The position numbers were made by a program, and so were the translations under genes. A stretch of DNA of 64,000 bases from Pseudomonadales bacterium (GTDB lineage Bacteria > Pseudomonadota > Gammaproteobacteria > Pseudomonadales > Pseudohongiellaceae): NCBI GenBank assembly GCA_023257655.1, contig JALRBQ010000039.1, positions 62,001 through 126,000 of the forward strand. Direction: 5' to 3'. The notes beneath the pieces are model-generated. The model did not search any database. It was not told where the DNA came from and worked only from the letters and a program-made list of their open reading frames with translations. Each line of letters starts with the position of its first letter. Within the stretch, counting starts at the first letter, position 1. Shown here piece by piece: positions 26,633 through 44,589 of this stretch.

Positions 26633-27103
26633 CTAGTTGGCTGAGCGTGACATGGGCCGAATGCGGGGGCCGTTATATTGCTCGTCGGTAACCGGGTCCA
26701 GCCAGACCACATCTCCTTCATAGATCGTGAGCTGGTGTGCGTCAATCTGCGGGTGAGCGCCATGCCAGTGCTCGACATTGGCCGGGGTCCAGAAGGGCTC
26801 GCCGGCATGAAACTCTTCGATGGCGCGGCCGCGAATCTGATGCAAACCGACGCCTTCCTCGATCATCAGCAACTGGCCCCAGGTATGGGAATGCCAGGAC
26901 GAGCGCACGCCGGCCGGGAACAGGATGCGGATGTTGCGCATATCTGGTGTCTGGCTGACAACCGGATTGCCACCCTGGAAATTGCTCTGCTGAGCGGAAA
27001 CGATGTCGGTCTGCGTGACCAGTACAATGGCGCCCAGCACGGCGGCGGCACTGACGGAAACGAGTGCTTCTTTGAGTCGTGAGGTTTTCGGATGAAGGCT
27101 CAT
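26633..27103 (-). CDS. Secreted cupin-domain protein
   Basis: 156 residues. A hydrophobic N-terminal segment (AAVLGAIVLVTQTDIVSAQ) is a signal peptide or anchor. The cupin fold follows, with motif 1 SSWHSHTWGQLLMIEEGVG and motif 2 FWTPANVEHWHGAHP supplying His ligands for a metal ion. Family members include carboxymuconolactone-associated and quercetinase-like cupins; catalytic activity is not shown. It is transcribed alone and divergent from the cytochrome gene at 27232. Confidence 0.85.
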   Translation of the reverse strand: MSLHPKTSRLKEALVSVSAAAVLGAIVLVTQTDIVSAQQSNFQGGNPVVSQTPDMRNIRILFPAGVRSSWHSHTWGQLLMIEEGVGLHQIRGRAIEEFHAGEPFWTPANVEHWHGAHPQIDAHQLTIYEGDVVWLDPVTDEQYNGPRIRPMSRSAN

Positions 27104-27231: not shown

Positions 27232-28068
27232 ATGCTTCATGCCAACAAGAGCCAGACCAATACCAATAAGTCGCCTATGTTGCAGTTCCCGGCAGTATCC
27301 ACCAGATTCCGCGTCCTCCTGTTCCTGCTCTGCGTGTCGTGCACCCCCGTTGGTGTCGCCCAGTCACAGAACCCGCTGGCCGATGATCCCCGCGCCGCGG
27401 CAGCAGGCGGCACCCTGTTTCGTGCCCAATGCGCTACCTGCCATGGCGCCGATGCCAAGGGTATTGAGACTATCGACGCACCCGATCTGACGCTGTTGTG
27501 GCAGCGCGAGGGTATCAGCGATGCAGCGGTGTTCGCCATCATCCGCAATGGCAGACCCGGCACGATCATGCCTCCCCACAGTTTTACCGACCCCCAGCTA
27601 TGGATGCTGGTGTCGTACCTGCATTCAGTCGATGCCAGTCGCACCACGCGTCTGCCGCCCGGGGATCGCGAAGCAGGCGGCCGTCTGTTTGCTGCGCAAT
27701 GCGCCGAGTGCCATCGGGCCGGTGGCGTACAGGGCGGCAGCCTCGGACCTGATCTCGGCCGACTGGCCAGTCGCCGCTCGCTGGACAGCCTGCGCACCTC
27801 ATTGCGAGACCCCGATGCCTTGATCAATCGCGGCTATGAAGCGGTGACTCTTGTCACGGCCGATAACGAGCGTGTGCGCGGCCTCATCAAGAGCGAGGAT
27901 GCCTTCACCCTGCAGATTCTGGACAGCGAGCAGCAATTGCGTGCCTTCGCCAAGCGCGACCTGCGCGAACTCAGTCGCGATCAGCAATCGCTGATGCCGG
28001 CGTTTTCGGAAGCCGAACTGAGTGAGCAGCAATTCATCGATATCGTGCACTATCTGCAGTCACCCTGA
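27232..28068 (+). CDS. Diheme cytochrome c, probable partner of the PQQ dehydrogenase
   Basis: 278 residues; ATG 27232 is used, though ATG 27277 would also leave a good signal peptide (FRVLLFLLCVSCTPVGVAQ). Two heme sites are CATCH at residues 67-71 and CAECH near residue 150, each followed by a methionine-containing region (GTIMPPHSF; SLMPAFSEAEL). The C-terminal part after the second heme resembles the PVC-type heme-binding domain. The PQQ alcohol dehydrogenase gene starts 20 bp downstream, so I infer this cytochrome is its electron acceptor. Confidence 0.88.
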   Translation: MLHANKSQTNTNKSPMLQFPAVSTRFRVLLFLLCVSCTPVGVAQSQNPLADDPRAAAAGGTLFRAQCATCHGADAKGIETIDAPDLTLLWQREGISDAAVFAIIRNGRPGTIMPPHSFTDPQLWMLVSYLHSVDASRTTRLPPGDREAGGRLFAAQCAECHRAGGVQGGSLGPDLGRLASRRSLDSLRTSLRDPDALINRGYEAVTLVTADNERVRGLIKSEDAFTLQILDSEQQLRAFAKRDLRELSRDQQSLMPAFSEAELSEQQFIDIVHYLQSP

Positions 28069-28088
28069 AGCGGGTCAACAACAGGACA

Positions 28089-29702
28089 ATGAGCGTGTTC
28101 AAAACCATCAAGCAGTTCCCACTTCTGATCTGTCTTTGCGGCAGCTCCCTATTTGCGCAGGAGTCAGGTCCAAGCTATGACGACATCCTGGCCGGTTTCG
28201 CCGACGGCGAACGCTGGCTGACCTATTCCGGTGACTATTCCGGCCAGCGCCATTCGCCACTCACCCAGATTAACCCGACAAACGTCGCAAACCTGCGACC
28301 GGTGTGGACCTTCCAGACTGGCACGACAACACGCGGTCGCGGCTTCGAGACCACGCCATTGGCGGACAACGGTGTGCTCTATGTTACTGGTTCTAACAAT
28401 TATGCTTGGGCTATCGACGCCCGATCCGGCCGCGCCTTCTGGCAATATCGACGCAATCTTCCCGGCGATCTGACCTATGGGGCCAGTGCTCCGGTGAATC
28501 GCGGTTTCGGTATGCTTGGAAATACGCTCTTCATGGTAACCCTCGATGCCCATCTGCTGGCGATGGACCGCCGCACCGGAGATATCCTGTGGGATGTGGT
28601 GCTGGCTGACTACAAGACCGGCTACGCGGCCACGTTGGCGCCGCTGGTGCTCGATGACAAGGTGATCGTGGGTATTTCCGGCGGTGAGTATGCAACACGC
28701 GGCTTTATCGACGCCTATGCCCCAGACACCGGTGCCCGACTGTGGCGGTTCTATACGATTCCCGGTCCCGGTGAGCCTGGCAGCGAAACCTGGCCGGATG
28801 ACCCCGATATCCTGGCGCGCGGTGGTGGTGGCACCTGGATGAACGGCAGCTATGACCCGGAACTGGACCTGATCTACTGGGGCGTCGGTAATCCGAATCC
28901 GGATTATTACGGCGACATTCGTCCCGGCGATAACCTCTATTCGAACTCCCTCGTTGCGCTGGAAGCGAGCACCGGCAAGCTGCGCTGGCACTATCAGTTT
29001 ACGCCCCACGATCTGAACGATTGGGACTCGAACCAGCTACCGGTATTGGCGGACATCGACTGGCGCGGTGAACCGCGATCAGTGGTCATGTTGGCGAACC
29101 GCAACGGCTTCTTTTATGTGCTCGATCGCATCACCGGAGAATTACTCCAGGGCACACCGTTTACGGCAACAAGTTGGGCGCGGGAACTGGACGCCGACGG
29201 GCGGCCTATCGTGCTCAATGATGGCAGCAAGGGGTGTGTGCCCGACCCCTGGGGCTCGACCAACTTCATGCCGCCGTCGTTCTATGCGGAACTCAACCTG
29301 TTCATCGTGACCGCCCGGGAAACCTGTGCGACGTTCGTGCCAGAGGCGCCGGATTTTGCACCTGGACAGGCTTCGTTCGGTGGGGTGGTCTTTATCGACA
29401 ATACCGTGGGTACCGGTGCGTTGCGGGCGCTGGATGTCGCAACCGGCGCCGTGCGTTGGGAGTTTCCCTATGCCTCACCGAGTTTTGGCGGGGTCATGAC
29501 TACCGCGAGTGGCCTCGTGTTTGCCGGTGATCATGAAGGCAATTTCATGGCGTTTGATGCCGCCACTGGTGAGAACCTGTGGCATTACCAGGGGGGCGCC
29601 CAGATCTGGGGTGCGGCACCGATGACTTTCATGCTCGATGGCCGCCAGCTCGTGTTGATCGCAGCCGGCACGACCCTGACGGCGTTTGCCTTGCCGGATT
29701 AG
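28089..29702 (+). CDS. PQQ-dependent alcohol dehydrogenase, eight-bladed propeller
   Basis: 537 residues with a Sec signal. Propeller W-motifs are visible, for example GRAFWQYRRNLPG, GKLRWHYQFTPHD and GAVRWEFPYASPS. The catalytic Asp is predicted in TPHDLNDWDSNQ. Its spacing gives Asp-Trp-Asp, so a second Asp sits at the +2 position used by lanthanide-dependent XoxF/ExaF enzymes. The vicinal Cys-Cys pair of methanol and ethanol dehydrogenases is absent (TYGASAPVNRGF instead). No heme motif is fused, so electrons should pass to the diheme cytochrome encoded 20 bp upstream. The alcohol substrate is unknown. Confidence 0.87.
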   Translation: MSVFKTIKQFPLLICLCGSSLFAQESGPSYDDILAGFADGERWLTYSGDYSGQRHSPLTQINPTNVANLRPVWTFQTGTTTRGRGFETTPLADNGVLYVTGSNNYAWAIDARSGRAFWQYRRNLPGDLTYGASAPVNRGFGMLGNTLFMVTLDAHLLAMDRRTGDILWDVVLADYKTGYAATLAPLVLDDKVIVGISGGEYATRGFIDAYAPDTGARLWRFYTIPGPGEPGSETWPDDPDILARGGGGTWMNGSYDPELDLIYWGVGNPNPDYYGDIRPGDNLYSNSLVALEASTGKLRWHYQFTPHDLNDWDSNQLPVLADIDWRGEPRSVVMLANRNGFFYVLDRITGELLQGTPFTATSWARELDADGRPIVLNDGSKGCVPDPWGSTNFMPPSFYAELNLFIVTARETCATFVPEAPDFAPGQASFGGVVFIDNTVGTGALRALDVATGAVRWEFPYASPSFGGVMTTASGLVFAGDHEGNFMAFDAATGENLWHYQGGAQIWGAAPMTFMLDGRQLVLIAAGTTLTAFALPD

Positions 29703-29832
29703 GCCGCCACCCTTATTACAATCTGTCACAGACACCAGCCGGTGTCGGTAGACTTTTCCAGAACTGGCTCTTATGCTTTAAGCCGTTGTGCAATCCTGTT
29801 TCCAGATTTAAAAAATAACAGAGGAAATACCC

Positions 29833-31302
29833 ATGCTCACGAAAAGACTGATCACCGCGTTCACCGCCGGTTTAATCGGTTTCCCTCTGGTCGCTGCCGC
29901 GCAGCCCCACGACGCCAGCGTCGCCAATCACCAGCCCCATCTGTATGACATTGCCGATTTCGGCATGCAGGGCAGTGACATCACGTTTGCTGAGCACATC
30001 GCCCCTATTCTGCAGCGCAGCTGCCAGAACTGTCACCGTCCCGGTGGCGGCGGACCGATGTCACTCATGACTTACGACCAGGTGCGACCGTGGGCGCCCG
30101 TGATCAAATACCGTACTGCGATTCGCGACCGCATGGGCACCATGCCGCCTTACTTCCTCGAGAAGAACATCGGCATTACCGAATTCAAGAGCGATTACTC
30201 CTTGTCAGACCTCGACCTTGCCATGATTCAGGCCTGGGTCGACAACGGTGCGCAACGTGGCGATCCGGACAAGGAGCCACCCCTGCTGGTGTTTGATAAC
30301 AGCGATGAGTGGTCGATCGGTGAGCCCGATCTCGTCATCCGCTCCAAAGAGTTTTCCCGTCCTGCCGTTGGTCCCGATTGGTGGGGCGATATTGGTCTCG
30401 TGCCGACAGGTCTGAAAGAAGACCGTTATGTGGCTGCCATCGAAGTGCGCGAGGTAAACGATATTCCCAAGGATGCTGGCTCCGACACCGTCGGCGGGCG
30501 CTACATCGTTCATCACCTGACTTACACCAGCGGCAAGCTGAGCGAGGATGGAGGTGAGATCGTCGGTGACATTACGAGCTGGCCCATCCACGAGGTCGGC
30601 CGCAATGCGGACGTATTCCCGGTCAAGGCCGGACGGCTGTTGCCGGCCAATTCGGCGCTGCATCTGGAAGCGACTCACATGCACTCCAACGGCCGTGAGA
30701 CGAAGGCCTACGTCGAGTTTGGCATCAAGTTCTTCCCCGCCGACTATGAACCGGAATACGCCGATCGCGGTCCTCGCACAGGTAATGGCATCGACATTGA
30801 CGTCCTGCCGAACATGGCCAACCAGGAGTTTCATAACTACGTAGTGCTGCAGGAACACACGAAAATTATCGCGTTTGAACCGCACCTGCACGCACCCGGT
30901 GTGCGCATGTGCATGGAGGCGATCTGGGGTCACAACCAGTTCACACTGAACTGTGTCGGCTACGACCACAACTGGGTCAAACAGTATGTGTACGAAGACG
31001 ATGCCGCGCCGTTGCTGCCCAAAGGCACGATCCTGCACACGATCGGCTACCTCGACACCACACCTGCCAACCCGAACCTGGCGGATCCACGCAACTGGGC
31101 TGGCGGTGGCCGTCGTTCCGTGTCCAATATGTTTATCGATCTCGGTTATTCGGTCACATTGACAGAAGAGCAATTCCGGGAAGAAATGGCAGTGCGTCGG
31201 GCGAAGATGAAAGATCGTAACGACTACGACGTCGGTTGCCCCATGTGCTGGGCACCGGAATATATGGATGACAAACCTTCATTGGCACAAGGAAACGACT
31301 AG
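29833..31302 (+). CDS. Cytochrome c / PHM-like copper protein (second copy)
   Basis: 489 residues with a Sec signal. One heme site, CQNCH, lies at residues 64-68. The copper-domain motifs of the PHM family follow: VHHLTYTSG, LEATHMHSNG, FEPHLHAPG and a final SVSNMFIDLG. The last aligns with TTDEMANARIYY of the copy at 551-1936, where the DEM methionine matches the CuM ligand; here that methionine is replaced, although a Met follows three residues later. A histidine-based site may replace it. A secreted Ig-like protein gene starts 2 bp downstream, so the two are cotranscribed. Confidence 0.83.
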   Translation: MLTKRLITAFTAGLIGFPLVAAAQPHDASVANHQPHLYDIADFGMQGSDITFAEHIAPILQRSCQNCHRPGGGGPMSLMTYDQVRPWAPVIKYRTAIRDRMGTMPPYFLEKNIGITEFKSDYSLSDLDLAMIQAWVDNGAQRGDPDKEPPLLVFDNSDEWSIGEPDLVIRSKEFSRPAVGPDWWGDIGLVPTGLKEDRYVAAIEVREVNDIPKDAGSDTVGGRYIVHHLTYTSGKLSEDGGEIVGDITSWPIHEVGRNADVFPVKAGRLLPANSALHLEATHMHSNGRETKAYVEFGIKFFPADYEPEYADRGPRTGNGIDIDVLPNMANQEFHNYVVLQEHTKIIAFEPHLHAPGVRMCMEAIWGHNQFTLNCVGYDHNWVKQYVYEDDAAPLLPKGTILHTIGYLDTTPANPNLADPRNWAGGGRRSVSNMFIDLGYSVTLTEEQFREEMAVRRAKMKDRNDYDVGCPMCWAPEYMDDKPSLAQGND

Positions 31303-31304
31303 TT

Positions 31305-32282
31305 ATGCAAGGATTGAACACGACTGCAAGGCTTGTCGGCGCCATCAGTCTGGCGGCGGTTTTCCTGCTGGGCACCACTGCCCAGGGTGCCCAGCGCTTC
31401 ATGGAACTGACCGGTGAGGTAACCTCACCGGCCTATGAAGGTTGGTGGCCCAATGACGACGGAACATTTAAATTGTTCTTTGGTTACATGAATTCGAACT
31501 GGGAAGAGACCTTCGATATCCCGATCGGGCCCGATAATTATTTCTCGGAAGTCGGCGCGGGTGCGCTGGATGATCTGGCAAAGGATGGGTTTGACTTCGC
31601 GGTAGCCGACAAGGGGCAGCCAACGCATTTCTATCCGCGTCGGAATCCGTTCCTGTTCATGATCGACGTCCCAGCGGATTTCGGTACGCGAGAATTGGTC
31701 TGGACGCTGAAGACCCAGGGCCAGACGCTGCGCGCCTATGGCACACTGAAGGCGGACTACCGCATCGACCCTCAGGTCATCTCCACCGAGGTCGGTGGTA
31801 ATTTCGGCAGCCTTAGCGACACGCTGCGTTCCAATATCGCACCGGAGCTGCGGCTCGAGGGTGAAGCCAGCCGTACTGTGCGGGTAGGTCAGCCGTTGAG
31901 CCTGGCCGTGCGCGCCAGCGATCCGGATAATTACCCGCCTCCGCGACCGGCTCCACGCATGAATGATATCGATCGATTGTATCGACCGCCGTCGTCCATC
32001 GTCGCCATGAGTGGTCCCGGCTTGCGTTTCTCCTGGACCGTCTATCGTGGGCCGGCAAAATCCGCCGAGTTCAATCCGGTGCAGTTCAAGACCTACACGG
32101 ATACCCGCATGTACGGCAACTCACCCTGGTCGCCACCCTATACCATTCCCGAACCTCCGGAAGACGGTCGCTGGGAGGCGCAGGTTGTCTTCAATGAGCC
32201 CGGTGAATACGTGTTGCGAGGTATCGCCAGCGATGGCTCGCTGTTCACGTACCAGAACGTGACGGTAACCGTTACCCGATAA
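31305..32282 (+). CDS. Secreted Ig-like-fold hypothetical protein
   Basis: 325 residues with a Sec signal (LVGAISLAAVFLLGTTAQGAQ). The sequence is beta-rich: FKLFFGYMNSNWEETFDIPIG near the start, and a C-terminal Ig-like segment with VRVGQPLSLAVRASDPDN, EPGEYVLRGIASDGSLFT and QNVTVTVTR. A Pro-rich loop lies between. I do not know a function; its 2-bp spacing from the cytochrome/PHM-like gene suggests they form a complex or act together. Confidence 0.75.
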   Translation: MQGLNTTARLVGAISLAAVFLLGTTAQGAQRFMELTGEVTSPAYEGWWPNDDGTFKLFFGYMNSNWEETFDIPIGPDNYFSEVGAGALDDLAKDGFDFAVADKGQPTHFYPRRNPFLFMIDVPADFGTRELVWTLKTQGQTLRAYGTLKADYRIDPQVISTEVGGNFGSLSDTLRSNIAPELRLEGEASRTVRVGQPLSLAVRASDPDNYPPPRPAPRMNDIDRLYRPPSSIVAMSGPGLRFSWTVYRGPAKSAEFNPVQFKTYTDTRMYGNSPWSPPYTIPEPPEDGRWEAQVVFNEPGEYVLRGIASDGSLFTYQNVTVTVTR

Positions 32283-32288
32283 TCGCCG

Positions 32289-32315
32289 ACAGACCCCGCC
32301 AGTGGCGGGGTCTGT
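32289..32315 (+). terminator. Strong GC-rich stem-loop after the Ig-like gene
   Basis: ACAGACCCCGCC pairs perfectly with GGCGGGGTCTGT across a three-base loop (AGT). No T-run follows, so it may act as an RNA-stabilising or partial terminator hairpin before the TRAP genes. Confidence 0.55.
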
Positions 32316-32372
32316 GGCATTGTGCTGCCTGCTGGGTTATGCTGCCGCGACACCCAGAACAGAGCATTCGAA

Positions 32373-33593
32373 ATGCCACGAAGTACCAACCTTTTCCTGC
32401 TGCGGCTGGCACACTCCTGCAGGCTTTGCATTCAGATCTGGCTACGTTGCCTGTTGCTGGCTGCGCTTGGCGTCGCACCGTCGGCGGTGCTGGCGGCAGA
32501 GGCTGGGATCGTCATGCCGAAGACCATTGCCTGGTCTGCCTATCCCACTGGAACCGGCGGCTATAGCCAGGCCGTCGCTCTCGGCAATATCCTGCAGCGT
32601 CAATACAAGACCAATTTACGAGTCATACCGGGTCGCAATGACGTTTCTCGTCTGGCTACCTTGCGAGCGGGTCGAGTACATTTTTCAGCAGGTGGCTCCG
32701 AGTCTGTCTACGCCCAGGAGGGGATTCTCAATTTCGCATCGCGTATCTGGGGGCCACAGCCAATCCGAGCACTGCTCTCCAATTTTTCCGACAGTTGTTC
32801 GTTCTCTTTTGCTACCGCAACTGATGCTAACATTCGTAGTGTGGCGGATATCAAGGGCAAGCGCGTCACTTTCGTGCAGGGAGCGCCATCTCTTAACAAT
32901 GCAACCGCGGCTTTGCTGTCCTATGCCAACCTGACTTGGGACGACGTCACTCCGGTTGAAGTAGGTGGCTACAATGCCTCAATCGATGCCGTATTGAACG
33001 ACCGTGCCGATGTCGTCGGTGGCGCTTGCAACTCACCACCATTCCTGCGAATCGAAGCCTCGCCGCGGGGACTGACTTTCCCGGCCATGCCGCATGACAA
33101 TCTCGAGGCAGTGGCTCGCGTCCGTGCGCGGCTGCCCTGGTATGTGCCACATATCGCCTATGAAGGGCCGACGCTTCCGGAGGAGGGTCTCGAGGTCTTC
33201 ACTTCCGCCTATCCTTTGCTGGTCGGGCTGGATACCTCCGATGAACAGCTGGTCTACAGCATCGTCAAGATCATGCATGTGCACTTCGATGAGTACAAAA
33301 ACAATGCACCCGGAGCCGGCGGCTGGACCATGGACCGACAGAAGCTCGAACAGGCCTTCCTGCCGTATCACCCCGGTGCCATTCGCTATTTCCGCGAGAT
33401 CGGCGTCTGGACCGAGGCGGCCGAGGCGACGAACGCCGCCAATCTCGAACGGCAACGCGTCCTGCAACAGGCCTGGCAGCAGTTTTTGCCGACAGCGCCC
33501 GAGGGCTATCAGGAATTCGAGGCAGCATGGCTGGCGGCACGCCAGCAGGCGCTTGAGGCGGCTGGAATGATCACACTCGCGGACAGTTTGTAA
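32373..33593 (+). CDS. TAXI-family TRAP transporter substrate-binding protein
   Basis: 406 residues from ATG 32373, with a Sec signal (IWLRCLLLAALGVAPSAVLAA). TAXI binding-protein features are SAYPTGTGGYSQAVALGNIL, LATLRAGRVHFSAGGSES and ADIKGKRVTFVQGAPSLNN. It captures a periplasmic organic anion for the fused permease encoded 3 bp downstream. The substrate is not predictable from sequence. Its place in the oxidative cluster suggests the ligand is a product of the periplasmic dehydrogenase or oxygenase. Confidence 0.9.
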   Translation: MPRSTNLFLLRLAHSCRLCIQIWLRCLLLAALGVAPSAVLAAEAGIVMPKTIAWSAYPTGTGGYSQAVALGNILQRQYKTNLRVIPGRNDVSRLATLRAGRVHFSAGGSESVYAQEGILNFASRIWGPQPIRALLSNFSDSCSFSFATATDANIRSVADIKGKRVTFVQGAPSLNNATAALLSYANLTWDDVTPVEVGGYNASIDAVLNDRADVVGGACNSPPFLRIEASPRGLTFPAMPHDNLEAVARVRARLPWYVPHIAYEGPTLPEEGLEVFTSAYPLLVGLDTSDEQLVYSIVKIMHVHFDEYKNNAPGAGGWTMDRQKLEQAFLPYHPGAIRYFREIGVWTEAAEATNAANLERQRVLQQAWQQFLPTAPEGYQEFEAAWLAARQQALEAAGMITLADSL

Positions 33594-33596
33594 GCC

Positions 33597-35606: not shown

Positions 35607-35730
35607 TGCCCGCCGCCGACGACATTGCATTGGGCAGTGCGCTGATTTAACCTCGTGTATCCGCCTGCTGAATTCCTGTCCTCGCAGAGAGCGCTCGAGC
35701 TTTAACGCCGAACTGCCAAGGAGCTAACCG

Positions 35731-36798
35731 ATGACCCGATTTGCTTGCTGCCATCGCACACTGTGGCTGTTGACTGCCTGCGTGCTCTCCGCGAGTGCGT
35801 TCGCCCAATTGGAACCGATTAACGACCGTCCCAATCCCTACTCGTCGGTGGATGGCTGGGCCAAGTTGCCCAATGGCCGTGAATGGGGCTCGACCGCCGG
35901 TGTTGATATCGATCCCGATGGGCGTCACCTGTGGGCAATCGATCGCTGTGGTGGTAACAGCTGCGCTGAATCGACGCTCGATCCGATCGTCAAGATCGAC
36001 CCGGAGGGCAAGGTGGTGGAATCGATTGGGGGCGGATTGATGTTGTTTCCCCATGGCTTGCATGTCGACCGCGATGGCAATGTCTGGGTGACGGACGGGC
36101 AGGGACCGAATCCCGATAATCCTGCCACTGCCGGTAAGGGACACGTCGTCTACAAATTCAGCCCTGAGGGCGAAGTATTGCTGACACTCGGGCGCCCCGG
36201 TGTCGCCGGTGACGGGACCGACGAATTGCTGGAGACTCCCTGCGACGTCGTCACCGATGCCGACGGCAATATCTATGTCGGTGACGGCCACAGTGGCCAG
36301 AATGCGAGCGCGACGGAAGCCACTGTCGCGCGTATCGTGAAGTTCGATCGCAACGGCAGGCTTATCAAATACTGGGGGGGCTGGGGCTCGACAGCGGGCA
36401 AGTTGAAAACGCCACACGCACTGGATATCGATTCGCGCAATCGGCTCATCGTAGGCGACCGTGGCAATAACCGGCTGCAGATTTTCGATCTCGATGGTAA
36501 CTACATGGGCGAGTTCAAGACGTTTAGCCGTCCAAGCGGCATCTTCGTTGCCGACGATGACACCATCTATGTCGCGGATTCCGAGTCGGCGTTCGACGAA
36601 GTGCGCAATCCGGGCTGGCGACCGGGCATTCGGGTCGGTAGCCTGCTGGATGGAATCGTGGATTATTTTATCGAGGGTGCCGTGCCGGCCTACCCGAATG
36701 GGTCGAATCCCGAAGGGGTGGCTGTCGACGCGGCGGGCAATGTCTATGGCGCGGTTGTGTCCGATGGCGGGGCGCTGATCAAGTCATCGCGACCTTAG
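35731..36798 (+). CDS. PAL-like NHL-repeat propeller protein, secreted
   Basis: 355 residues with a Sec signal. Six NHL blades are visible, e.g. FPHGLHVDRDGNVWVTDGQG and TPHALDIDSRNRLIVGDRGN. These two match the zinc-His blades of peptidyl-alpha-hydroxyglycine amidating lyase (PAL). The third PAL ligand region reads NPEGVAVDAAG, with Glu where PAL has His, and the tyrosine region reads GDGHSGQN. Bacterial proteins of this type are commonly named PAL-family; true lyase activity is unproven. It lies in the same gene block as a PHM-like protein, the other half of the eukaryotic PAM enzyme. Confidence 0.8.
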   Translation: MTRFACCHRTLWLLTACVLSASAFAQLEPINDRPNPYSSVDGWAKLPNGREWGSTAGVDIDPDGRHLWAIDRCGGNSCAESTLDPIVKIDPEGKVVESIGGGLMLFPHGLHVDRDGNVWVTDGQGPNPDNPATAGKGHVVYKFSPEGEVLLTLGRPGVAGDGTDELLETPCDVVTDADGNIYVGDGHSGQNASATEATVARIVKFDRNGRLIKYWGGWGSTAGKLKTPHALDIDSRNRLIVGDRGNNRLQIFDLDGNYMGEFKTFSRPSGIFVADDDTIYVADSESAFDEVRNPGWRPGIRVGSLLDGIVDYFIEGAVPAYPNGSNPEGVAVDAAGNVYGAVVSDGGALIKSSRP

Positions 36799-36810
36799 GC
36801 ATTGCAGACT

Positions 36811-36870
36811 GGAACACTGAACGGAACACTGACAGGAACACTGACAGGAACACAGAAAGAAACACCGAAT
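36811..36870 (+). repeat. Five tandem 12-bp repeats between the PAL-like and DGQPDLQGVW genes
   Basis: The unit GGAACACTGACA is repeated about five times. Copies 2 and 3 are near identical, and copies 4 and 5 degenerate progressively (GGAACACAGAAA, GAAACACCGAAT). It lies 32 bp upstream of the next start codon, in the likely leader. Its role is unknown. Confidence 0.85.
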
Positions 36871-36902
36871 AAAACCAATTAACAAGAGTGTGGAGTTGTG
36901 AC

Positions 36903-37916
36903 ATGAGTGATTCATTTGCACGCAAAGCGGCAATGACCGGCTTGCTATTCTTCGTTACCGGTATGGGCCAGGCCTGGGCGCAATCCGGTGCCGACTGGCA
37001 ATTGCCGCGTACGATCGATGGTCAACCCGACCTGCAAGGCGTCTGGGCAAACAATACGATCACGCCGGTCGAGCGTCCGGATGTCTTCGGCGACAAGGAA
37101 ATTCTCACCGAGGAAGACCAGATCTTTCTGCAACAGCGCATTCGGGAAATTACCCAGGAAGATGGCGACGCGCTGTTTGGCGAAGGAGTGCTTGCCGCCG
37201 CGTTCTCCGGCGAGGTCAAGTCCTACGACCCGAGCACAGGTAACTACGATCAGGCCTGGATGGCACAACGCTCCGTACACAACCGAACCTCCCAGATTAT
37301 CGAGCCGCGCAACGGCAAATACCCGCCCCGCACCGAGGAGTCAATTGCCCAGTCACGGTTGATGGCCGACCGGCGGCGTGACCATCCGGCGGATTCCTGG
37401 CTCGATCGTCCTCTCAGTGAGCGCTGCATCAGCTACGGCTCGCCGTATCTCGGCTCCGGCTATAACAGCTACTGGCAAATCATCCAGGCCAAAGATCATG
37501 TCGTGATTCTGCAGGAGATGATTCATGACGCCCGCATCATTCCCCTGACACCCAAACCCCATGCCGACGAGAAGATCAAGTTGTGGCACGGCGACTCTCG
37601 CGGATATTGGGACGGCGATACGCTGGTTATTGAAACGACCAACTACTCTGACGAGAGTGGTTATGGTCCGAACACTTCGGCTAAGGTCAATGTCGAGCGG
37701 CTGACCCGCGTCGGTCCGGATTCGCTGCAGTATGAAATTACCAGTAACGATCCAGGCACCTATACAGCGCCCTATACGCGGCAGATCATCTTCGATCACA
37801 GTGAGGATCCGATCTTCGAATACGCCTGTCACGAGGGTAATTACGGCATGATGAATATTCTGTCCGGTCATCGCGCGGAGGAACGCTTCGCCCTGGAAGC
37901 CGCGGCGGGCAAATAG
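36903..37916 (+). CDS. Secreted 'DGQPDLQGVW' family protein (complete copy)
   Basis: 337 residues from ATG 36903, preceded by GGAG. A Sec signal (TGLLFFVTGMGQAWAQ) leads to DGQPDLQGVWANNTITPVERP, which is shared with the partial gene at 1-514. Further features are SERCISYGSPYLGSGYNSYW, LWHGDSRGYWDGDTLVIE and a C-terminal FEYACHEGNYGM with a Cys-His pair. I do not know the function; the aromatic- and His-rich body suggests a periplasmic ligand-binding or enzymatic domain. The rhodanese gene begins at the base after its stop. Confidence 0.83.
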   Translation: MSDSFARKAAMTGLLFFVTGMGQAWAQSGADWQLPRTIDGQPDLQGVWANNTITPVERPDVFGDKEILTEEDQIFLQQRIREITQEDGDALFGEGVLAAAFSGEVKSYDPSTGNYDQAWMAQRSVHNRTSQIIEPRNGKYPPRTEESIAQSRLMADRRRDHPADSWLDRPLSERCISYGSPYLGSGYNSYWQIIQAKDHVVILQEMIHDARIIPLTPKPHADEKIKLWHGDSRGYWDGDTLVIETTNYSDESGYGPNTSAKVNVERLTRVGPDSLQYEITSNDPGTYTAPYTRQIIFDHSEDPIFEYACHEGNYGMMNILSGHRAEERFALEAAAGK

Positions 37917-38306
37917 ATGAAACTCAGCAAAGGCTATAAACAGCTGGTGGCCGAGGCCGAAGCTCTCGTCACCAGCTTGACACCCGCCGAGGTGGACGCC
38001 CGTCTCGGCCAATCCGGCGTGTTACTGGTGGACTTGCGTGACGTACGCGAAGTGAAGCGGGAAGGCAAGATTCCCGGATCTCTGCACGTGCCCCGCGGTA
38101 TGCTGGAATTCTGGATCGACCCCGACAGTCCCTACTACCGATCCGAATTCGATAATGTTCAAGCCATTATTCTCTATTGCAACAAGGGCTGGCGCTCCGC
38201 GCTCGCGGCCCAGTCCCTGATGGCAATGGGACTGGATTCTGTCGCCCATATGCAGGGTGGCATGGAACGTTGGCAGCTCGACATCGGTCGCCTGGAACAC
38301 CTCTAA
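37917..38306 (+). CDS. Rhodanese-like domain protein
   Basis: 129 residues, one rhodanese domain. The substrate-loop motif VDLRDVREVKREGKIPGSLHVPRG is typical, and the active-site loop LYCNKGWRSALAA supplies the catalytic cysteine. It has no signal peptide and should be cytoplasmic, transferring sulfane sulfur. It directly follows the DGQPDLQGVW gene with zero spacing. Confidence 0.9.
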   Translation: MKLSKGYKQLVAEAEALVTSLTPAEVDARLGQSGVLLVDLRDVREVKREGKIPGSLHVPRGMLEFWIDPDSPYYRSEFDNVQAIILYCNKGWRSALAAQSLMAMGLDSVAHMQGGMERWQLDIGRLEHL

Positions 38307-38323
38307 GTCCCTCTGCACGTGCC

Positions 38324-38350
38324 CAGCGTCCCGGTTCGAGGTGGACGCTG
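38324..38350 (+). terminator. Weak stem-loop downstream of the rhodanese gene
   Basis: CAGCGTCC and GGACGCTG form an 8-bp stem with an 11-base loop. No T-run follows, so termination is uncertain. Confidence 0.35.
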
Positions 38351-38403
38351 AGCCCGCTCAATCGCTATGATGTACCTCCCCCAATGCAGCGAGGACAGCG
38401 GCA

Positions 38404-39477
38404 ATGACAATAACAAGAAGCGTCTCGAAAAGACCTGCCCACTCCGGCTTCAGCCGGTCACGACGTACCCTGCTACAGGCATTCCCCCTGGCCGCCTTTA
38501 CACCAGCCTTGCTGGCGCAGGCCGGCCCGACGCCAGTCGCCGTGCGCAAGCTGCACAGTTTCAACATTCGCGTTAGTGATGTTGCGCGTTCGGTCGCGTT
38601 TTATCAGGATATCTTCGGCGCACCAATCCAGGCCCGTCAGGGTGATACGGTCGTGTTACGCATCGGTCCGGGGCCACGTTTCTTCAGTATTAGTCCGACA
38701 GCGGCCGGTGAACAACCCGGCTTTACGCATATCGGGCTCAGCGTCGCCGACTTCGAGCTGGAGCGGGTACGTTCCGAACTGGAAGGATTTGGCATTGCAC
38801 GTGGCGCAGCTACTCTTGCCGACACCGAGGGGCTGTCACGGGCCCAGCGTTCCTGGGTCAGATCCCGTGGCGCCACGCAGGAATTGTTCTTTGCCGATAT
38901 TGAAGGAATAACCTATCAATTGTCACCGGAAGATCATTGTGGTGGTGGCGGTCCGCTCGGCACTGTCTGCAGTGCAGTCGAGCCGGCTGGCAATGCGGGT
39001 CTGTTCCGACTCGTTGACCTTAGCCATTTCACGAATTTCCTCGCCAATAACGGCCGTGCCAACAGTTTTTACACGCGCGCCTTTGGCAAGCAGTTCCAGG
39101 CCTATCAGGGTCCGGCGTCGCCAGTCATCGGTGTGGGTGATGGCATTCAGTTTCTCATGTATGTCGGCGGTAATCAGGAAGGAGCTCCGACTCAACCCGG
39201 TCGCATCGATCATGTCTGTTTCTCCATCGAGGAATTCGAAGTGGATGCAATCCTGGCGCAACTCACCGACTATGGCCTGACTGGACGCGACAGCGGTAAC
39301 AATGCGCCACCTCTGTCACACTGGGTCAGTCTGCGCATGCCGAATCGGGGTGGTGTCGAGGGCGGCACACCGGAGGTGTATTTCTCCGATCCGGATGGCA
39401 TTCATATCCAGGTGCAGGATGCACGCTATTGCGGCGGCGGCGGCTATTTAGGCGACGACTGCCCGGCGCTGCCCTGA
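38404..39477 (+). CDS. Tat-exported double VOC-domain protein
   Basis: 357 residues. The N-terminus carries SRSRRTLLQAFPLAAF, a twin-arginine signal, so the protein is probably exported folded. Two VOC (glyoxalase/extradiol dioxygenase-fold) units follow: KLHSFNIRVSDVARSVAFYQDIFG and, later, DLSHFTNFLANNGRANSFYTRAFG. Each ends in a similar Cys-Gly motif, HCGGGGPLGTVC and YCGGGGYLGDDC. A metal-binding role is likely from the fold; the reaction is unknown. Exported VOC proteins of this type are uncommon. Confidence 0.83.
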   Translation: MTITRSVSKRPAHSGFSRSRRTLLQAFPLAAFTPALLAQAGPTPVAVRKLHSFNIRVSDVARSVAFYQDIFGAPIQARQGDTVVLRIGPGPRFFSISPTAAGEQPGFTHIGLSVADFELERVRSELEGFGIARGAATLADTEGLSRAQRSWVRSRGATQELFFADIEGITYQLSPEDHCGGGGPLGTVCSAVEPAGNAGLFRLVDLSHFTNFLANNGRANSFYTRAFGKQFQAYQGPASPVIGVGDGIQFLMYVGGNQEGAPTQPGRIDHVCFSIEEFEVDAILAQLTDYGLTGRDSGNNAPPLSHWVSLRMPNRGGVEGGTPEVYFSDPDGIHIQVQDARYCGGGGYLGDDCPALP

Positions 39478-39523
39478 GACCACAACAACAAAGCATCAGA
39501 GTTCGCAACAAGGAAAGCGCAGT

Positions 39524-40543
39524 ATGGAATTTCGCTACATTGGCAACAGCGGCTTACGGGTAACTCCCATCTGTATGGGCACGATGAGTTTCGGTTCCTG
39601 GAGTGACAGAAAAGAGTCGTTCCGCATCCTGGACAAGGCCTATGACCGTGGCATCAATTTCTACGACACGGCCGAGGTGTATCCGGTACCGCCGACGGCG
39701 GAACTGGCAGGATTGACCGAGGAAATCTTCGGGCAGTGGATCAAGACCCACAACCGCGATTCCATTATCATTGCGACCAAGGTGGCAGGGGCTGCCTCCG
39801 GCTGGTTCGTCCCGCCCATCCGTCACGGCCTGACTGCGATCGATCGACATCATATCGAAACAGCGGTTGAAGGTAGCCTGCGGCGTCTGGGGGTGGACTA
39901 TATCGATCTCTATCAGGTGCACTGGCCGGACACGGTGGTGCCGATCGAAGAATCGATGCAGGCACTCGACCGACTCGTCGAGGCCGGTAAGGTACGCTAC
40001 CTCGGTACATCCAATGACACCGCCTACGGTCTGACGAAGGCCAATACCGTCGCTGACTACGAAGGGCTCGCGCGGTTTCAGTCGATCCAGAATAATTTCT
40101 CCCTGCTTAATCGCCGTTTCATGGATGAACTGGCCCAGGTCTGCAGGAAGGAGCAGGTCTCCCTGTTACCGTATTCTCCGATTGGTGGCGGCGTACTCAG
40201 TGGCAAGTACAACACGCCACAGATGCCACGCGGCTGCCGCTTCGGTGATTATCATCACGACTCCAATCCCCGACAGCAGGCGATGGCAGCGCGCTTTGTC
40301 AATGAAAAGACGCTGGCGTCTACGGCCCGCTATCTCGCTATTGCGCAGGAGGCGGGTATGTCTCCGGTGACTCTGGCAACCGCGTGGAGCATGAATTTCG
40401 ATTACGTCGCCTCCACCATCATCGGGGCGCGCACAGCGTCCCAACTCGATGAGTCCCTGGCGGCCCTGGATGTCACCCTGAGTGCAGATGTCATGAGGCA
40501 ATGCGATGAAGTACACGCTGAATATCTGTATCCCATGGGCTAG
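39524..40543 (+). CDS. Aldo/keto reductase, Tas-like
   Basis: 339 residues. The AKR tetrad is visible: Asp and Tyr in FYDTAEVYPVPP, Lys in IIATKVAG and His in YQVHWPD. The Tas/AKR pattern (EVYPVPP...LAGLTEEIFGQWI) and the NADPH-binding STIIGARTASQLDE are present. It should reduce or oxidise a carbonyl compound with NADP(H) in the cytoplasm. The next gene starts 38 bp before its stop codon, which suggests tight coupling. Confidence 0.92.
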   Translation: MEFRYIGNSGLRVTPICMGTMSFGSWSDRKESFRILDKAYDRGINFYDTAEVYPVPPTAELAGLTEEIFGQWIKTHNRDSIIIATKVAGAASGWFVPPIRHGLTAIDRHHIETAVEGSLRRLGVDYIDLYQVHWPDTVVPIEESMQALDRLVEAGKVRYLGTSNDTAYGLTKANTVADYEGLARFQSIQNNFSLLNRRFMDELAQVCRKEQVSLLPYSPIGGGVLSGKYNTPQMPRGCRFGDYHHDSNPRQQAMAARFVNEKTLASTARYLAIAQEAGMSPVTLATAWSMNFDYVASTIIGARTASQLDESLAALDVTLSADVMRQCDEVHAEYLYPMG

Positions 40544-41336
40544 TCTTCTGCTCAGTCTGGCGGTAACCCAGTCGGCTCTGGCGCAGAAAGTGCATATCGC
40601 ACACTGTCTCGCGGGCTGTCCGGCCGGGGCGCCAGCCGCCAATGAAATCGTCGTGCGGCACCTGTTTGCGGCGTCGATAAATTATCAGAGTGGGCTGGCG
40701 GATTGGGTAGCCTATCGGGTGTTACCCGGATCAATTGGTGTCGCCTCACTGCTGCCCAGAAGCTGGGAAGTGGATGAGTTGCTCAATGGAGCTGCACGCA
40801 CCGAGGTCGAGTCAGGGCCGCGCTTCATTCAGCCAGATCTCAGCAACCAACAAGACGGTGCCTACCGCATCAATGAGATCATCATCAATGCCGAGGACCG
40901 GGGCCGACTCGTGCCGATGAGCAGCTTCGCCGGCACACCCTTTTGGGAAGATCTGAATTATCTGAGCAACATGGCACCCTTGCCGAGTGATCTGCGTGTT
41001 GGACCATGGTCGCGTCTCGATCAAGCCGTAAATGAGATGTCGGCACAAGTGGGTGAAGTGTATGTTGTCAGCGGGCCGCTCTACCTGGTCGGGGAAAATC
41101 TGATCGCCGACGGGGAGGGAGGTCGTCGTCCTTCAGCCTACTTCAAGTTCATCACCACCGAGGCGCGGTACGCCGCCTTTATCTTTCCGCAGAACGCGCC
41201 GCAGCACAGCAACTACTGCGAATTCGCGAGCAGTATGGAATCCATTCAGCGTGACAGCGGATTGCGCCTTTTACCTCAACAATCGGAACCTGCAACGGCG
41301 AGCCTGCAAACGCTGCTCGGTTGCGGATCCAACTAA
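40506..41336 (+). CDS. Secreted NUC-type nuclease-fold protein with altered active site
   Basis: 276 residues with a Sec signal. The overall layout matches DNA/RNA non-specific endonucleases of the Serratia type: HCLAGCPAGAP near the start, then ADWVAYRVLPG. Where the family has DRGH, this protein has EDRGRLVPMSSFAG, so the general-base His is replaced by Arg. The metal-binding Asn region (normally QxxLNxGxW) reads PSDLRVGPW. I infer a catalytically dead or repurposed nuclease fold. It begins inside the aldo/keto reductase gene; GAGG precedes the ATG. Confidence 0.72.
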   Translation: MKYTLNICIPWASLLLSLAVTQSALAQKVHIAHCLAGCPAGAPAANEIVVRHLFAASINYQSGLADWVAYRVLPGSIGVASLLPRSWEVDELLNGAARTEVESGPRFIQPDLSNQQDGAYRINEIIINAEDRGRLVPMSSFAGTPFWEDLNYLSNMAPLPSDLRVGPWSRLDQAVNEMSAQVGEVYVVSGPLYLVGENLIADGEGGRRPSAYFKFITTEARYAAFIFPQNAPQHSNYCEFASSMESIQRDSGLRLLPQQSEPATASLQTLLGCGSN

Positions 41337-41356
41337 CGCCGAGAGAGATTTGCCCT

Positions 41357-42046
41357 ATGGAAAATGTTTTCGCACCCGCCAAGATACCGGTTGTTCCCCT
41401 GTTCGGTTCGGCAATGGTGTTCCCGGTACATCGCATTTATTGTGTGGGTCGTAACTACAGCGATCACGTAAAGGAGATGGGCGGCGACCCCAAACTGGAA
41501 CCGCCGATATTTTTCAGCAAGCCCGCGGATGCGATTGTCACTGAGAACAAGCCGGTCAGATACCCACTTGCGACTGCCGATCTGCACCATGAAGTGGAGC
41601 TGGTTGTGGCGTTGTCCGCAGGTGGTGAGAATATTGAGGCCGCCGCCGCTCTTGAGTGTGTGTTCGGTTATGCCGTTGGTGTGGACCTGACCAGGCGCGA
41701 TCTGCAGGGACTTGCCAAAAAGGGAGGCAAGCCCTGGGATGTGGCGAAGGGCTTCGATCAGTCGGCACCGATTTCTGCCATAAATCCTCTCAGCAATCTG
41801 ATCACGCATCCAACTGATGCTGCGATCTCGCTGAGTGTGAATGGCTCGGTGCGGCAACAAGCCAACATCAATGAAATGATATGGAGCATCGCCGAGATCA
41901 TCAGTGAGCTGTCGCGCTATTACGAACTGCGCGCTGGCGATCTCATCTATACCGGAACACCCGCCGGCGTGGCGGCGATAACCCGAGGCGACAAGGTGCG
42001 CGCGGAAATCGATACGGTCGGGGTTCTGGAATTCGTTCTGGAATGA
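41357..42046 (+). CDS. Fumarylacetoacetate-hydrolase family enzyme (fumarylpyruvate-type)
   Basis: 229 residues from ATG 41357. The sequence is closest to fumarylpyruvate hydrolases: CVGRNYSDHVKEMGGDP, PPIFFSKPADAIV, LHHEVELVVALS (metal-binding Glu residues), VGVDLTRRDLQ and IYTGTPAGVAAI. These enzymes cleave C-C bonds at the end of gentisate-type ring-cleavage routes. It is the last gene of the plus-strand block at 27-42 kb, which suggests the block serves catabolism of an aromatic or keto-acid compound. Confidence 0.9.
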   Translation: MENVFAPAKIPVVPLFGSAMVFPVHRIYCVGRNYSDHVKEMGGDPKLEPPIFFSKPADAIVTENKPVRYPLATADLHHEVELVVALSAGGENIEAAAALECVFGYAVGVDLTRRDLQGLAKKGGKPWDVAKGFDQSAPISAINPLSNLITHPTDAAISLSVNGSVRQQANINEMIWSIAEIISELSRYYELRAGDLIYTGTPAGVAAITRGDKVRAEIDTVGVLEFVLE

Positions 42047-43628: not shown

Positions 43629-43635
43629 CGTCGCC

Positions 43636-44571: not shown

Positions 44572-44589
44572 CCCGGGATTCCCGCATTC

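What the first reader, a model, noticed from the sequence alone, without database searches (positions are those of the whole stretch)
27232..42046. Periplasmic oxidation-and-import locus combining quinoprotein, heme-copper protein, PAL-like propeller and TAXI-TRAP
Twelve plus-strand genes in about 15 kb run with short gaps: diheme cytochrome, PQQ dehydrogenase, cytochrome/PHM-like protein, Ig-like protein, TAXI binding protein and permease, PAL-like propeller, DGQPDLQGVW protein, rhodanese, exported VOC protein, aldo/keto reductase, nuclease-fold protein and FAH-type hydrolase. Seen: order and motifs. Known: individual families. Inferred: substrate oxidation outside the membrane, import of a product, and cytoplasmic cleavage. 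I know no described pathway with this set.
Basis: partly seen in the sequence, partly recalled or inferred. Interest (0 to 1): 0.72.

Follow-up and report, generated by a model that had tools for sequence, protein, structure and literature searches.

The report
Hidden copper oxygenase paired with quinoprotein
A stretch of a water-dwelling bacterium's genome carries four linked genes that look like a new kind of copper enzyme for putting oxygen onto molecules outside the cell, next to an alcohol-oxidising enzyme that could recycle its electrons; the import and breakdown genes beside them look like mostly separate neighbours.

Summary
The genes are there, but the 15 kb is a mosaic, not one pathway. 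Across 81 genomes of the same genus the TAXI-TRAP permease is present independently of the quinoprotein core (34 genomes have TRAP and P4; 32 expected); it goes with the downstream VOC-AKR-FAH block, which survives in genomes without the core. The NHL propeller occurs only in core-bearing genomes, but in half of them. The real unit is four exported proteins: diheme cytochrome c, quinoprotein with the lanthanide D-x-D motif, a heme-c protein, and an Ig-like partner. The heme-c protein, which profile libraries see only as a weak cytochrome, is predicted to have the fold of peptidylglycine/dopamine hydroxylases (PHM/DBH) and keeps a matching set of copper-ligand residues. It lies directly upstream of the Ig-like gene in 56 of 56 testable loci in Gammaproteobacteria, Acidobacteria and Gemmatimonadota. 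The quartet is contiguous in all three; a second, divergent version with cytochrome and quinoprotein fused occurs in four of four (near-)closed genomes examined. Best mechanism (inferred): copper-dependent C-H hydroxylation outside the membrane, then quinoprotein oxidation of the alcohol, with electrons returned through cytochromes. Substrate unknown. Most genomes of the genus lack PQQ synthesis genes, so PQQ is scavenged or the quinoproteins are empty.

The parts
26633..27103 (-). U1: exported cupin (mandelonitrile-lyase-like), divergent from the core; probable part of the module
   Evidence: NF049940 88 bits, below cut-off 140; beside P1 in 18 of 20 genus loci; 54% homologue after the quartet in Longimicrobiales L132, 47% beside P3-P4 in Acidobacteria L094
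27232..28068 (+). P1: exported cytochrome c with two heme stretches (core)
   Evidence: PF13442 8.6e-23, two stretches; TIGR02603 92.5 > 68
28089..29702 (+). P2: exported quinoprotein alcohol dehydrogenase (core)
   Evidence: TIGR03075 496.7 > 480; best solved relative PedH 6zcv 3.3e-99
29019..29027 (+). P2 D311-W312-D313: catalytic Asp plus lanthanide-type Asp (D-x-D)
   Evidence: aligned to PedH; TPHDxxDWD in 21 of 21 orthologues; meaning of D-x-D from PMC11996626
29833..31302 (+). P3: heme-c / PHM-DBH-fold protein, predicted copper monooxygenase (core)
   Evidence: AF2 model and PDB comparison; conserved ligand set 53/53
29980..30162 (+). P3 residues 50-110: cytochrome c domain (C64xxC67H68)
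   Evidence: weak PF13442 hit in 46 of 46 members
30319..31176 (+). P3 residues 163-448: PHM/DBH fold; candidate Cu ligands H227 H228 H282 / H351 H353 M433
   Evidence: VIA Z 15.9 to 6ala_A, rmsd 3.4, 249 aligned
31305..32282 (+). P4: exported partner with C-terminal Ig-like domain, no known family (core)
   Evidence: P3-P4 adjacency 56 of 56
32322..33593 (+). P5: TAXI solute-binding protein (neighbour, not core)
   Evidence: TIGR02122 161.3 > 84; with P6 in 8 of 20 genus loci
33597..35606 (+). P6: fused TRAP permease (neighbour, not core)
   Evidence: TIGR02123 567.9 > 321; 44 of 81 genomes, independent of the core
35731..36798 (+). P7: exported NHL propeller, PAL-like but lacking two PAL residues; facultative companion of the core
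   Evidence: 34 of 34 P7 genomes carry P2 or P4, 30 core genomes lack P7; in G072 it lies with P13, 100 kb from the core
36888..37916 (+). P8: exported DGQPDLQGVW protein, unknown family (neighbour)
   Evidence: no Pfam/NCBIfam; 4 of 20 loci; up to 77 first-look candidates per genome; co-occurrence not tallied
37917..38306 (+). P9: rhodanese (downstream block)
   Evidence: PF00581 4.9e-19
38404..39477 (+). P10: exported VOC protein (downstream block)
39524..40543 (+). P11: aldo/keto reductase (downstream block)
   Evidence: PF00248 5.7e-70
40506..41336 (+). P12: exported Endonuclease_NS-fold protein with DRGR for DRGH (downstream block)
   Evidence: PF01223 1.4e-16; Arg in 16 of 16
41321..42046 (+). 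P13: FAH-type hydrolase (downstream block)
   Evidence: PF01557 1e-53; 62 of 81 genomes, 10 of them with neither P2 nor P4

Best explanation
The functional unit is the quartet P1-P4 (probably with the divergent cupin), a periplasmic two-step oxidation module. P3 carries a heme-c domain joined to a PHM/DBH-fold domain with two copper sites. It would take electrons through its heme (in place of the ascorbate used by the animal enzymes) and use O2 to hydroxylate a C-H bond of a small substrate. P4 is its constant Ig-like partner or scaffold. P2, a lanthanide-type quinoprotein using scavenged PQQ, would oxidise the resulting alcohol. Its electrons would go through the diheme cytochrome P1 to the respiratory chain or back to P3, so the pair could run as RH2 + O2 -> R=O + H2O. 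TAXI-TRAP, P8 and the P9-P13 block are separate genes that share the same chromosomal site in this genus; the NHL propeller P7 may be a facultative accessory. Shown here: gene content, P3 fold (model), ligand conservation, pair and quartet conservation, modularity. Inferred: export (by eye), copper binding, oxygenase activity, direction of electron flow, alcohol intermediate. Substrate: not determined.
For: P3 residues 163-448: the best 26 structural matches are all PHM or DBH, Z 12.3-15.9, then a drop to Z 8.3 (Foldseek also ranks DBH 4zel and PHM first). C64xxCH, H227, H228, H282, H351, H353, M433 are kept in 53 of 53 P3 proteins from three phyla, in PHM order (HH, H, HxH, M); the fit runs to 448 against PHM 328, which puts M433 opposite about M314. 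A divergent relative (33-35%) scores PF03712 Cu2_monoox_C, E 0.006, in the matching part, sub-threshold. P3 directly precedes P4 in 56 of 56 loci with room. P2 and P4 orthologues (59 genomes each of 81) are together in 54, p 3.6e-9, 49 within 30 kb, 5 on different contigs. Contiguous quartet in two Gemmatimonadota and two Acidobacteria genomes (L132, L082; L093, L126), and the two pairs stay neighbours in swapped order in L065 and, as far as P2 shows, G054. Second version P4'-P3'-[cytochrome+quinoprotein fusion] in 4 of 4 genomes. P3-family loci lie within 3 kb of a PQQ-DH in 13 of 59 against 4.06 by random shifts, 0 of 2000. Own-genome paralogue pair flanked by SURF1, CopC and CopD.
Against: No sequence-level match of P3 to PHM: HHalign against rat PHM gave nothing significant, Pfam no Cu-monooxygenase hit in 46 of 46 members. 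Ligand geometry was not superposed; M433 lies in a stretch of pLDDT under 50. Of nine non-gammaproteobacterial genomes with a P2 orthologue, P3-P4 was found beside it in four; not in G127, G128, G132, G135; in G133 the contig ends; 17 of the 26 genomes searched have no P2 hit above 54%. Within 500 bp the PQQ-DH link is not above chance (3 vs 1.91, 603 of 2000), and the shift test does not allow for both families gathering in the same islands. P2 lacks the adjacent Cys pair of PedH, a pair reported as needed for electron transfer in a related enzyme (title in the reference list of PMC5487730). No PqqE in 46 of 59 P2-bearing genomes, own included. The fused quinohemoprotein of the second version lacks the HDxxDxD string. 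P7's restriction to core genomes means that the quartet may not be the whole unit.
Confidence: 0.5

Rival explanations
1. One 13-gene catabolic pathway: oxidation outside, import by TAXI-TRAP, cleavage by FAH inside.
For: Same strand, short gaps; on a shared contig core and TRAP within 30 kb in 28 of 28, core and P13 in 38 of 39; P7 only in core genomes.
Against: Presence of core and TRAP independent (p 0.45, or 0.59 with core = P2 or P4), core and P13 likewise (p 0.10); TRAP with VOC, AKR, nuclease-fold and FAH genes but no core in G026 and G023; core 100 kb from P7-P13 in G072; neither seen beside the core in other phyla.
Confidence: 0.12
2. P3 is not an oxygenase but a heme-copper electron carrier or copper-storage/sensing protein, and the quartet is a redox relay or copper-handling system.
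For: A paralogue pair lies by SURF1, CopC, CopD; extra invariant H253, H284, H379, C360, C374, C469xxC472; no activity shown.
Against: Only PHM/DBH match well; HH, HxH and M kept even in relatives of 33-35% identity that lost the extra Cys and several extra His; recurrent pairing with quinoproteins.
Confidence: 0.2
3. The quinoprotein is 'empty' (no PQQ) and plays a structural or other role; only P3-P4 act chemically.
For: Higher score to TIGR04528 acido-empty-quinoprotein (517.8 bits, but below its cut-off 650) than to TIGR03075; no PqqE over cut-off in 65 of 81 genomes, no PqqC in 12 of 12 PqqE-negative genomes tested.
Against: PQQ- and metal-site residues E200, N268, D311, D313, R338 (roles recalled) kept in at least 95% of 28 orthologues; PMC12124388 (passages read) reports PQQ uptake without synthesis as common, including Gammaproteobacteria, Gemmatimonadetes and Vicinamibacteria.
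Confidence: 0.12
4. A split bacterial peptide-amidating system or a variant of it: P3 as PHM and P7 as PAL.
For: P3 has the PHM fold; P7 resembles the PAL domain 3fvz, 1.2e-17; P7 orthologues occur only in genomes with P2 or P4, 34 of 34.
Against: P7 has His for the PAL tyrosine and, matched by eye, Glu for the third histidine in 15 of 15 (roles recalled); 28 of 59 P4 genomes lack a P7 orthologue; among other phyla only one distant NHL homologue (45%, other strand, L082) lies near the core.
Confidence: 0.06

Closest known systems
Peptidylglycine alpha-hydroxylating monooxygenase / dopamine beta-hydroxylase (PHM/DBH)
   Same: Predicted fold of residues 163-448 and the HH / H / HxH / M ligand order
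   Different: Bacterial, about 10% identity, N-terminal heme-c domain, constant Ig-like partner gene, beside a quinoprotein; not seen by Pfam
PedH / XoxF lanthanide-dependent quinoprotein alcohol dehydrogenases
   Same: P2 propeller, PQQ-site residues and D-x-D motif
   Different: No adjacent Cys pair; host lacks PqqE; gene pairs with a copper-oxygenase-like gene
Ln-PQQ-DH-rich Pseudomonadales UBA9145 and Acidobacteria of Voutsinos et al. 2025 (PMC11996626)
   Same: Many PQQ-DH per genome (25-50 matches at E<=1e-20 in four genomes), Pseudomonadales; very likely the same genus (inferred)
   Different: Word searches of its main text found 'cytochrome' 0 times, 'PQQ biosynthesis' 0 times and 'monooxygenase' 4 times (those shown: methane and hydrocarbon enzymes); I read the abstract, the first results section and passages, not the whole
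Particulate methane monooxygenase coupled to methanol dehydrogenase (recalled)
   Same: Works-like analogy: copper oxygenase fed by electrons from a quinoprotein acting on its own product
   Different: Unrelated fold, membrane enzyme; coupling here only inferred

Membership tests
PHM/DBH copper monooxygenases | PHM/DBH fold | tested here: met
   VIA Z 12.3-15.9 for 26 PHM/DBH entries, next Z 8.3; model pLDDT 76.5
PHM/DBH copper monooxygenases | Two copper sites, 3 His and 2 His + Met | tested here: inconclusive
   Residues conserved 53/53 in the right order; geometry not superposed, M433 in a low-confidence stretch
PHM/DBH copper monooxygenases | Recognised by Pfam PF01082/PF03712 | tested here: not met
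   None of 46 members; a divergent relative hits PF03712 at E 0.006, below cut-off
PHM/DBH copper monooxygenases | O2-dependent hydroxylation with one-electron reductant | not testable with these tools
   no assay
Lanthanide-dependent quinoprotein alcohol dehydrogenase | PQQ propeller with D-x-D | tested here: met
   21 of 21
Lanthanide-dependent quinoprotein alcohol dehydrogenase | Adjacent Cys pair | tested here: not met
   absent at the aligned place
Lanthanide-dependent quinoprotein alcohol dehydrogenase | PQQ available to the cell | tested here: inconclusive
   No PqqE over cut-off and no PqqC in G000, 93.4% complete; uptake not tested
TAXI-TRAP transporter | TAXI SBP plus fused permease over family cut-offs | tested here: met
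PAL (amidating lyase) | Catalytic Tyr and three Zn-binding His | tested here: not met
   Tyr to His (aligned) and third His to Glu (by eye), 15 of 15; roles recalled

The most novel reading that the evidence does not exclude
A previously unrecognised, much-expanded family of heme-fused copper monooxygenases in aquatic bacteria (10 to 29 members per genome in four (near-)closed genomes) works hand in hand with lanthanide-type quinoproteins as a self-sustaining periplasmic 'hydroxylate then oxidise' machine. The alcohol dehydrogenase returns through cytochromes the two electrons that the oxygenase spends, so that C-H bonds of dissolved organic matter are turned into carbonyls outside the cell without ascorbate or NADH.
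Probability: 0.3. Interest if true: 0.82.

Novelty: new variant of a known kind. Interest (0 to 1): 0.6.

Why it matters
If the fold and metal sites hold, bacteria own a large family of PHM/DBH-type oxygenases that the profile libraries tried here see only as weak cytochromes. It would give a concrete reaction, and a testable electron circuit, for the large number of lanthanide-type quinoproteins reported in ocean Pseudomonadales and Acidobacteria, and a route to oxygenate dissolved organic matter outside the cell. It also warns that gene neighbourhoods in this genus are mosaics: shared position does not mean shared pathway.

Tried and rejected
Whole-locus pathway: rejected on co-occurrence, except that P7 follows the core. 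Bacterial PAM (P3+P7): held unlikely on P7 residues and patchy presence; on the last recount P7 proved confined to core genomes, so I raised this rival from 0.04 to 0.06. Sequence proof of PHM kinship: HHalign of the 46-row P3 profile against rat PHM gave nothing significant; the PDB profile search gave two heme-region hits at E 0.46 and 0.93; NCBIfam no oxygenase. P4: only its C-terminal part (175-325) has matches, common Ig-like ones at Z 8-10; the N-terminal part was not tested alone. Promoter/terminator scan uninformative. Horizontal transfer of the quartet: in the P3 tree proteins group largely by phylum (L085, Gemmatimonadota, falls with Acidobacteria), with the quartet in three phyla; ancestral linkage with loss and repeated assembly were not separated. 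Substrate: no evidence found. Literature: searches on PHM bacterial homologues, PF03712, Cu2_monoox_C, ascorbate-dependent monooxygenase with cytochrome, Pseudohongiella with PQQ, and UBA9145 listed nothing that by title or start of abstract describes this module; open-licence papers only; the tool read one search's term as 'cu2monooxc'.
Full report
WHAT IS THERE. Thirteen plus-strand genes fill 27232-42046 as described; families are confirmed by Pfam and NCBIfam. I label them P1 to P13. The window is G000:C17:62001-126000, from a genome of 3.11 Mb in 101 contigs, 93.4% complete. Named records with the closest P4 relatives are gammaproteobacterial metagenome assemblies; one title names Lake Baikal and three are labelled Pseudohongiella (L052, L067, L073). 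The genus is very likely the UBA9145 group (Pseudomonadales) that PMC11996626 singles out for up to 70 lanthanide-type PQQ dehydrogenases per genome (abstract, first results section and passages read). That identity is my inference.

THE LOCUS IS A MOSAIC. P3 orthologues (68% or more) occur in 52 of 73 genus genomes searched, own included. I read 19 kb stretches (one of 12.7 kb) around the gene in 20 of them. P1-P2-P3-P4 is present in 20 of 20 (in G063 and G056 about 2 kb lies between P2 and P3), the divergent cupin in 18 of 20 (in those same two the stretch ends at P1; for G063 the record L073 shows none beside P1), TAXI-TRAP in 8, the NHL gene in 14, P8 in 4, P13 in 15 of 20. Some stretches end before these genes would appear. 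Over 81 genus genomes (tally; tests): P2 59, P4 59, P6 44, P7 34 (80% identity or more; more distant homologues not counted), P13 62; a few hits are partial. P2 and P4 are together in 54 (43.0 expected). P4 and P6 are together in 34 (32.0 expected, p 0.45). Because a contig break can hide P4, I recounted with core = P2 or P4 (64 genomes): with P6 36 (34.8 expected, p 0.59; eight TRAP genomes without core), with P13 52 (49.0 expected, p 0.10), with P7 34 of 34 (26.9 expected, p 4e-5). P6 and P13 are together in 41 (33.7 expected, p 1.5e-4), P7 and P13 in 32 (26.0 expected, p 0.001). So TRAP and the FAH block are independent of the core, while the NHL gene is a facultative companion of it. Fisher tests ignore shared ancestry and incomplete genomes. 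Further stretches show the separation directly: G026 and G023 (100 and 99% complete) keep TAXI-TRAP, VOC, AKR, nuclease-fold and FAH genes with no P2 or P4 orthologue; in G054 and G072 the core lies elsewhere (in G072 on the same contig, 100 kb from P7-P13). G015 and G065 also show NHL and downstream genes without the core, but have a P2 orthologue at the edge of another contig, so there an assembly gap is possible. On a shared contig core and TRAP are within 30 kb in 28 of 28 genomes and core and P13 in 38 of 39 (6 and 10 more on different contigs): the site is conserved and segments are lost from it.

THE CORE IS A CROSS-PHYLUM UNIT. A scan of the named genome collection with P4 gave 60 loci, partly the same genomes as above, in Gammaproteobacteria, Acidobacteria and Gemmatimonadota. 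P3 lies directly upstream of P4 in 56 of 56 where the contig leaves room; the other four (L062, L081, L092, L096) start at a contig edge. Of 26 non-gammaproteobacterial genomes searched for P2, nine have an orthologue of 70% or more and the rest nothing above 54%. By P3 clade (tree) it is 8 of 13 against 0 of 11 (p 0.002; the genomes of L092 and L096 are not placed because their P3 is off the contig; that of L092 has P2). P1 is adjacent to P2 in eight of eight with room. P1-P2-P3-P4 is contiguous in G125 (L132, followed by a cupin), G126 (L082), G136 (L093) and G145 (L126, where the pair is a more distant P3/P4, 52% and 49%). P3-P4 was not found beside P2 in G127, G128, G132 and G135; in G133 the contig ends. 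In the 28 non-gammaproteobacterial loci no TAXI-TRAP or P9-P13 homologue was found; one NHL homologue (45%, other strand) lies in L082 and some P8-like genes elsewhere (simple ORF picking, flanks up to 10 kb, several loci short).

P3 IS A PHM/DBH-FOLD PROTEIN WITH A HEME DOMAIN. Profile libraries see only weak cytochrome-type hits in P3 (beyond these, chance-level matches to unrelated families). An AlphaFold2 model from 46 sequences (pLDDT 76.5, pTM 0.76) compared with the PDB gives PHM and DBH for the first 26 rows (Z 12.3 to 15.9; best 6ala_A, rmsd 3.4 over 249 residues, 10% identity), then PNGase-type folds at Z 8.3 and lower. The alignment runs from P3 164 to 448 against PHM 61 to 328 in the best row. 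Invariant in 53 of 53 P3 proteins: C64xxC67H68, H227, H228, H253, H282, H284, H351, H353, M359, C360, C374, H379, M433, C469, C472. PDB titles tie H107 and H172 to the CuH site and list H108 and M314 mutants; H242 and H244 I recall. Order and rough spacing fit H227/H228, H282 and H351/H353/M433. M433 is in a stretch of pLDDT under 50 and I could not superpose side chains, so the copper sites are a strong suggestion, not a result. HHalign to rat PHM gave nothing significant.

MANY COPIES, AND A SECOND VERSION WITH QUINOPROTEIN. In four genomes assembled in one to four contigs there are 10 to 29 P3-family members (74 in all) and 25 to 50 PQQ-DH matches each at E 1e-20 (150 of 152 PQQ-DH rows were listed and used). 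Of 59 P3 loci, 13 have a PQQ-DH within 3 kb; 2000 random shifts gave a mean of 4.06 and a maximum of 10. Within 1.5 kb it is 10 against 2.82 (0 of 2000), within 5 kb 14 against 5.65 (4 of 2000), within 500 bp 3 against 1.91 (603 of 2000, no excess). Four of the 13 are the core itself and four are a second recurrent locus, so independent cases are fewer; three contig lengths were guessed. That second locus, in all four genomes, reads P4' - P3' - quinohemoprotein, where one protein of 718 to 752 aa holds cytochrome and PQQ propeller (Pfam on two of the four; in G056 my ORF picker took an opposite-strand frame in place of P3', which one search lists there). P3' (33-35% to P3, three sequences aligned) keeps HH, HxH and M; its third histidine (LHY) sits one residue off the alignment column, and the extra Cys and several extra His are gone. 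P3' scores PF03712 at E 0.006, below the cut-off. The fused quinoprotein lacks the HDxxDxD string. A further P3-P4 pair in the own genome is flanked by SURF1, CopC and CopD, genes of oxidase assembly and copper handling.

THE QUINOPROTEIN AND ITS COFACTOR. P2's best solved relative is PedH (3.3e-99). Residues aligned to the PQQ and metal site (roles recalled) are kept in at least 95% of 28 orthologues and the D-x-D motif in 21 of 21; PMC11996626 takes D-x-D as the sign of lanthanide use. The adjacent Cys pair is missing. PqqE passes its cut-off in 16 of 81 genus genomes and not in the own one; sub-cut-off hits also ring in 14 of 14 controls. PqqC is absent in 12 of 12 PqqE-negative genomes tested, including three single-contig ones (G024, G056, G063), and present in 2 of 2 PqqE-positive ones. 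So 46 of 59 P2-bearing genomes, some incomplete, have the quinoprotein without PqqE. PMC12124388 (passages read) reports PQQ import without synthesis as common and names Gammaproteobacteria, Gemmatimonadetes and Vicinamibacteria, groups in which this module occurs. Uptake in this genus was not tested.

MECHANISM. Fold plus ligand pattern suggest O2-dependent C-H hydroxylation; the heme domain suggests cytochrome-delivered electrons; repeated pairing with a cytochrome-linked quinoprotein suggests that the alcohol formed is the quinoprotein's substrate and that the electrons can be returned. Hydroxylation costs two electrons and alcohol oxidation yields two, so the circuit can balance. All of this paragraph is inference. 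The substrate is unknown.

VERDICT. Observation confirmed; the import-and-cleavage pathway is not supported; the oxidation core is real as a conserved gene unit across phyla, and contains a protein family whose likely oxygenase nature the profile libraries tried here do not see.

Noticed in passing
Genus of the window, 81 genomes: Dozens of quinoprotein genes per genome but PqqE over cut-off in only 16 of 81: PQQ scavengers or 'empty' quinoproteins.
   Followed up: partly
window 35731-36798: NHL propeller orthologue (80% or more) occurs only in genomes that carry P2 or P4 (34 of 34), though in G072 it lies 100 kb from them; its role beside the core is open.
   Followed up: partly
window 40506-41336: Exported Endonuclease_NS homologue has Arg in place of the DRGH histidine in 16 of 16 orthologues, so probably not an ordinary nuclease (role of His recalled).
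   Followed up: partly
window 36888-37916: DGQPDLQGVW protein: no known family, up to 77 first-look candidates in one genome of the genus.
   Followed up: no
window 23511-25810: SO2930-type diheme cytochrome (TIGR03806) and beta-helix (TIGR03805) genes just upstream, also beside the core in many genus loci.
   Followed up: no
window 42186-46303: CP-ATP-grasp, alpha-E-like, putative metallopeptidase and a proteasome-like minus-strand ORF; looks like the known Anbu cluster (recalled); lies after the FAH gene in several genus loci.
   Followed up: no
L114:8448-10223: SLC13/CitMHS-type permease next to the FAH gene in other genomes of the genus, missing in the window.
   Followed up: partly
L040:368-10759 (-): 3463-aa protein with 25 bacterial Ig-like (Big_12) stretches close to the core in G063.
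   Followed up: no
G024:C1:1833448-1847058: Tandem array of six divergent P3-family matches.
   Followed up: no
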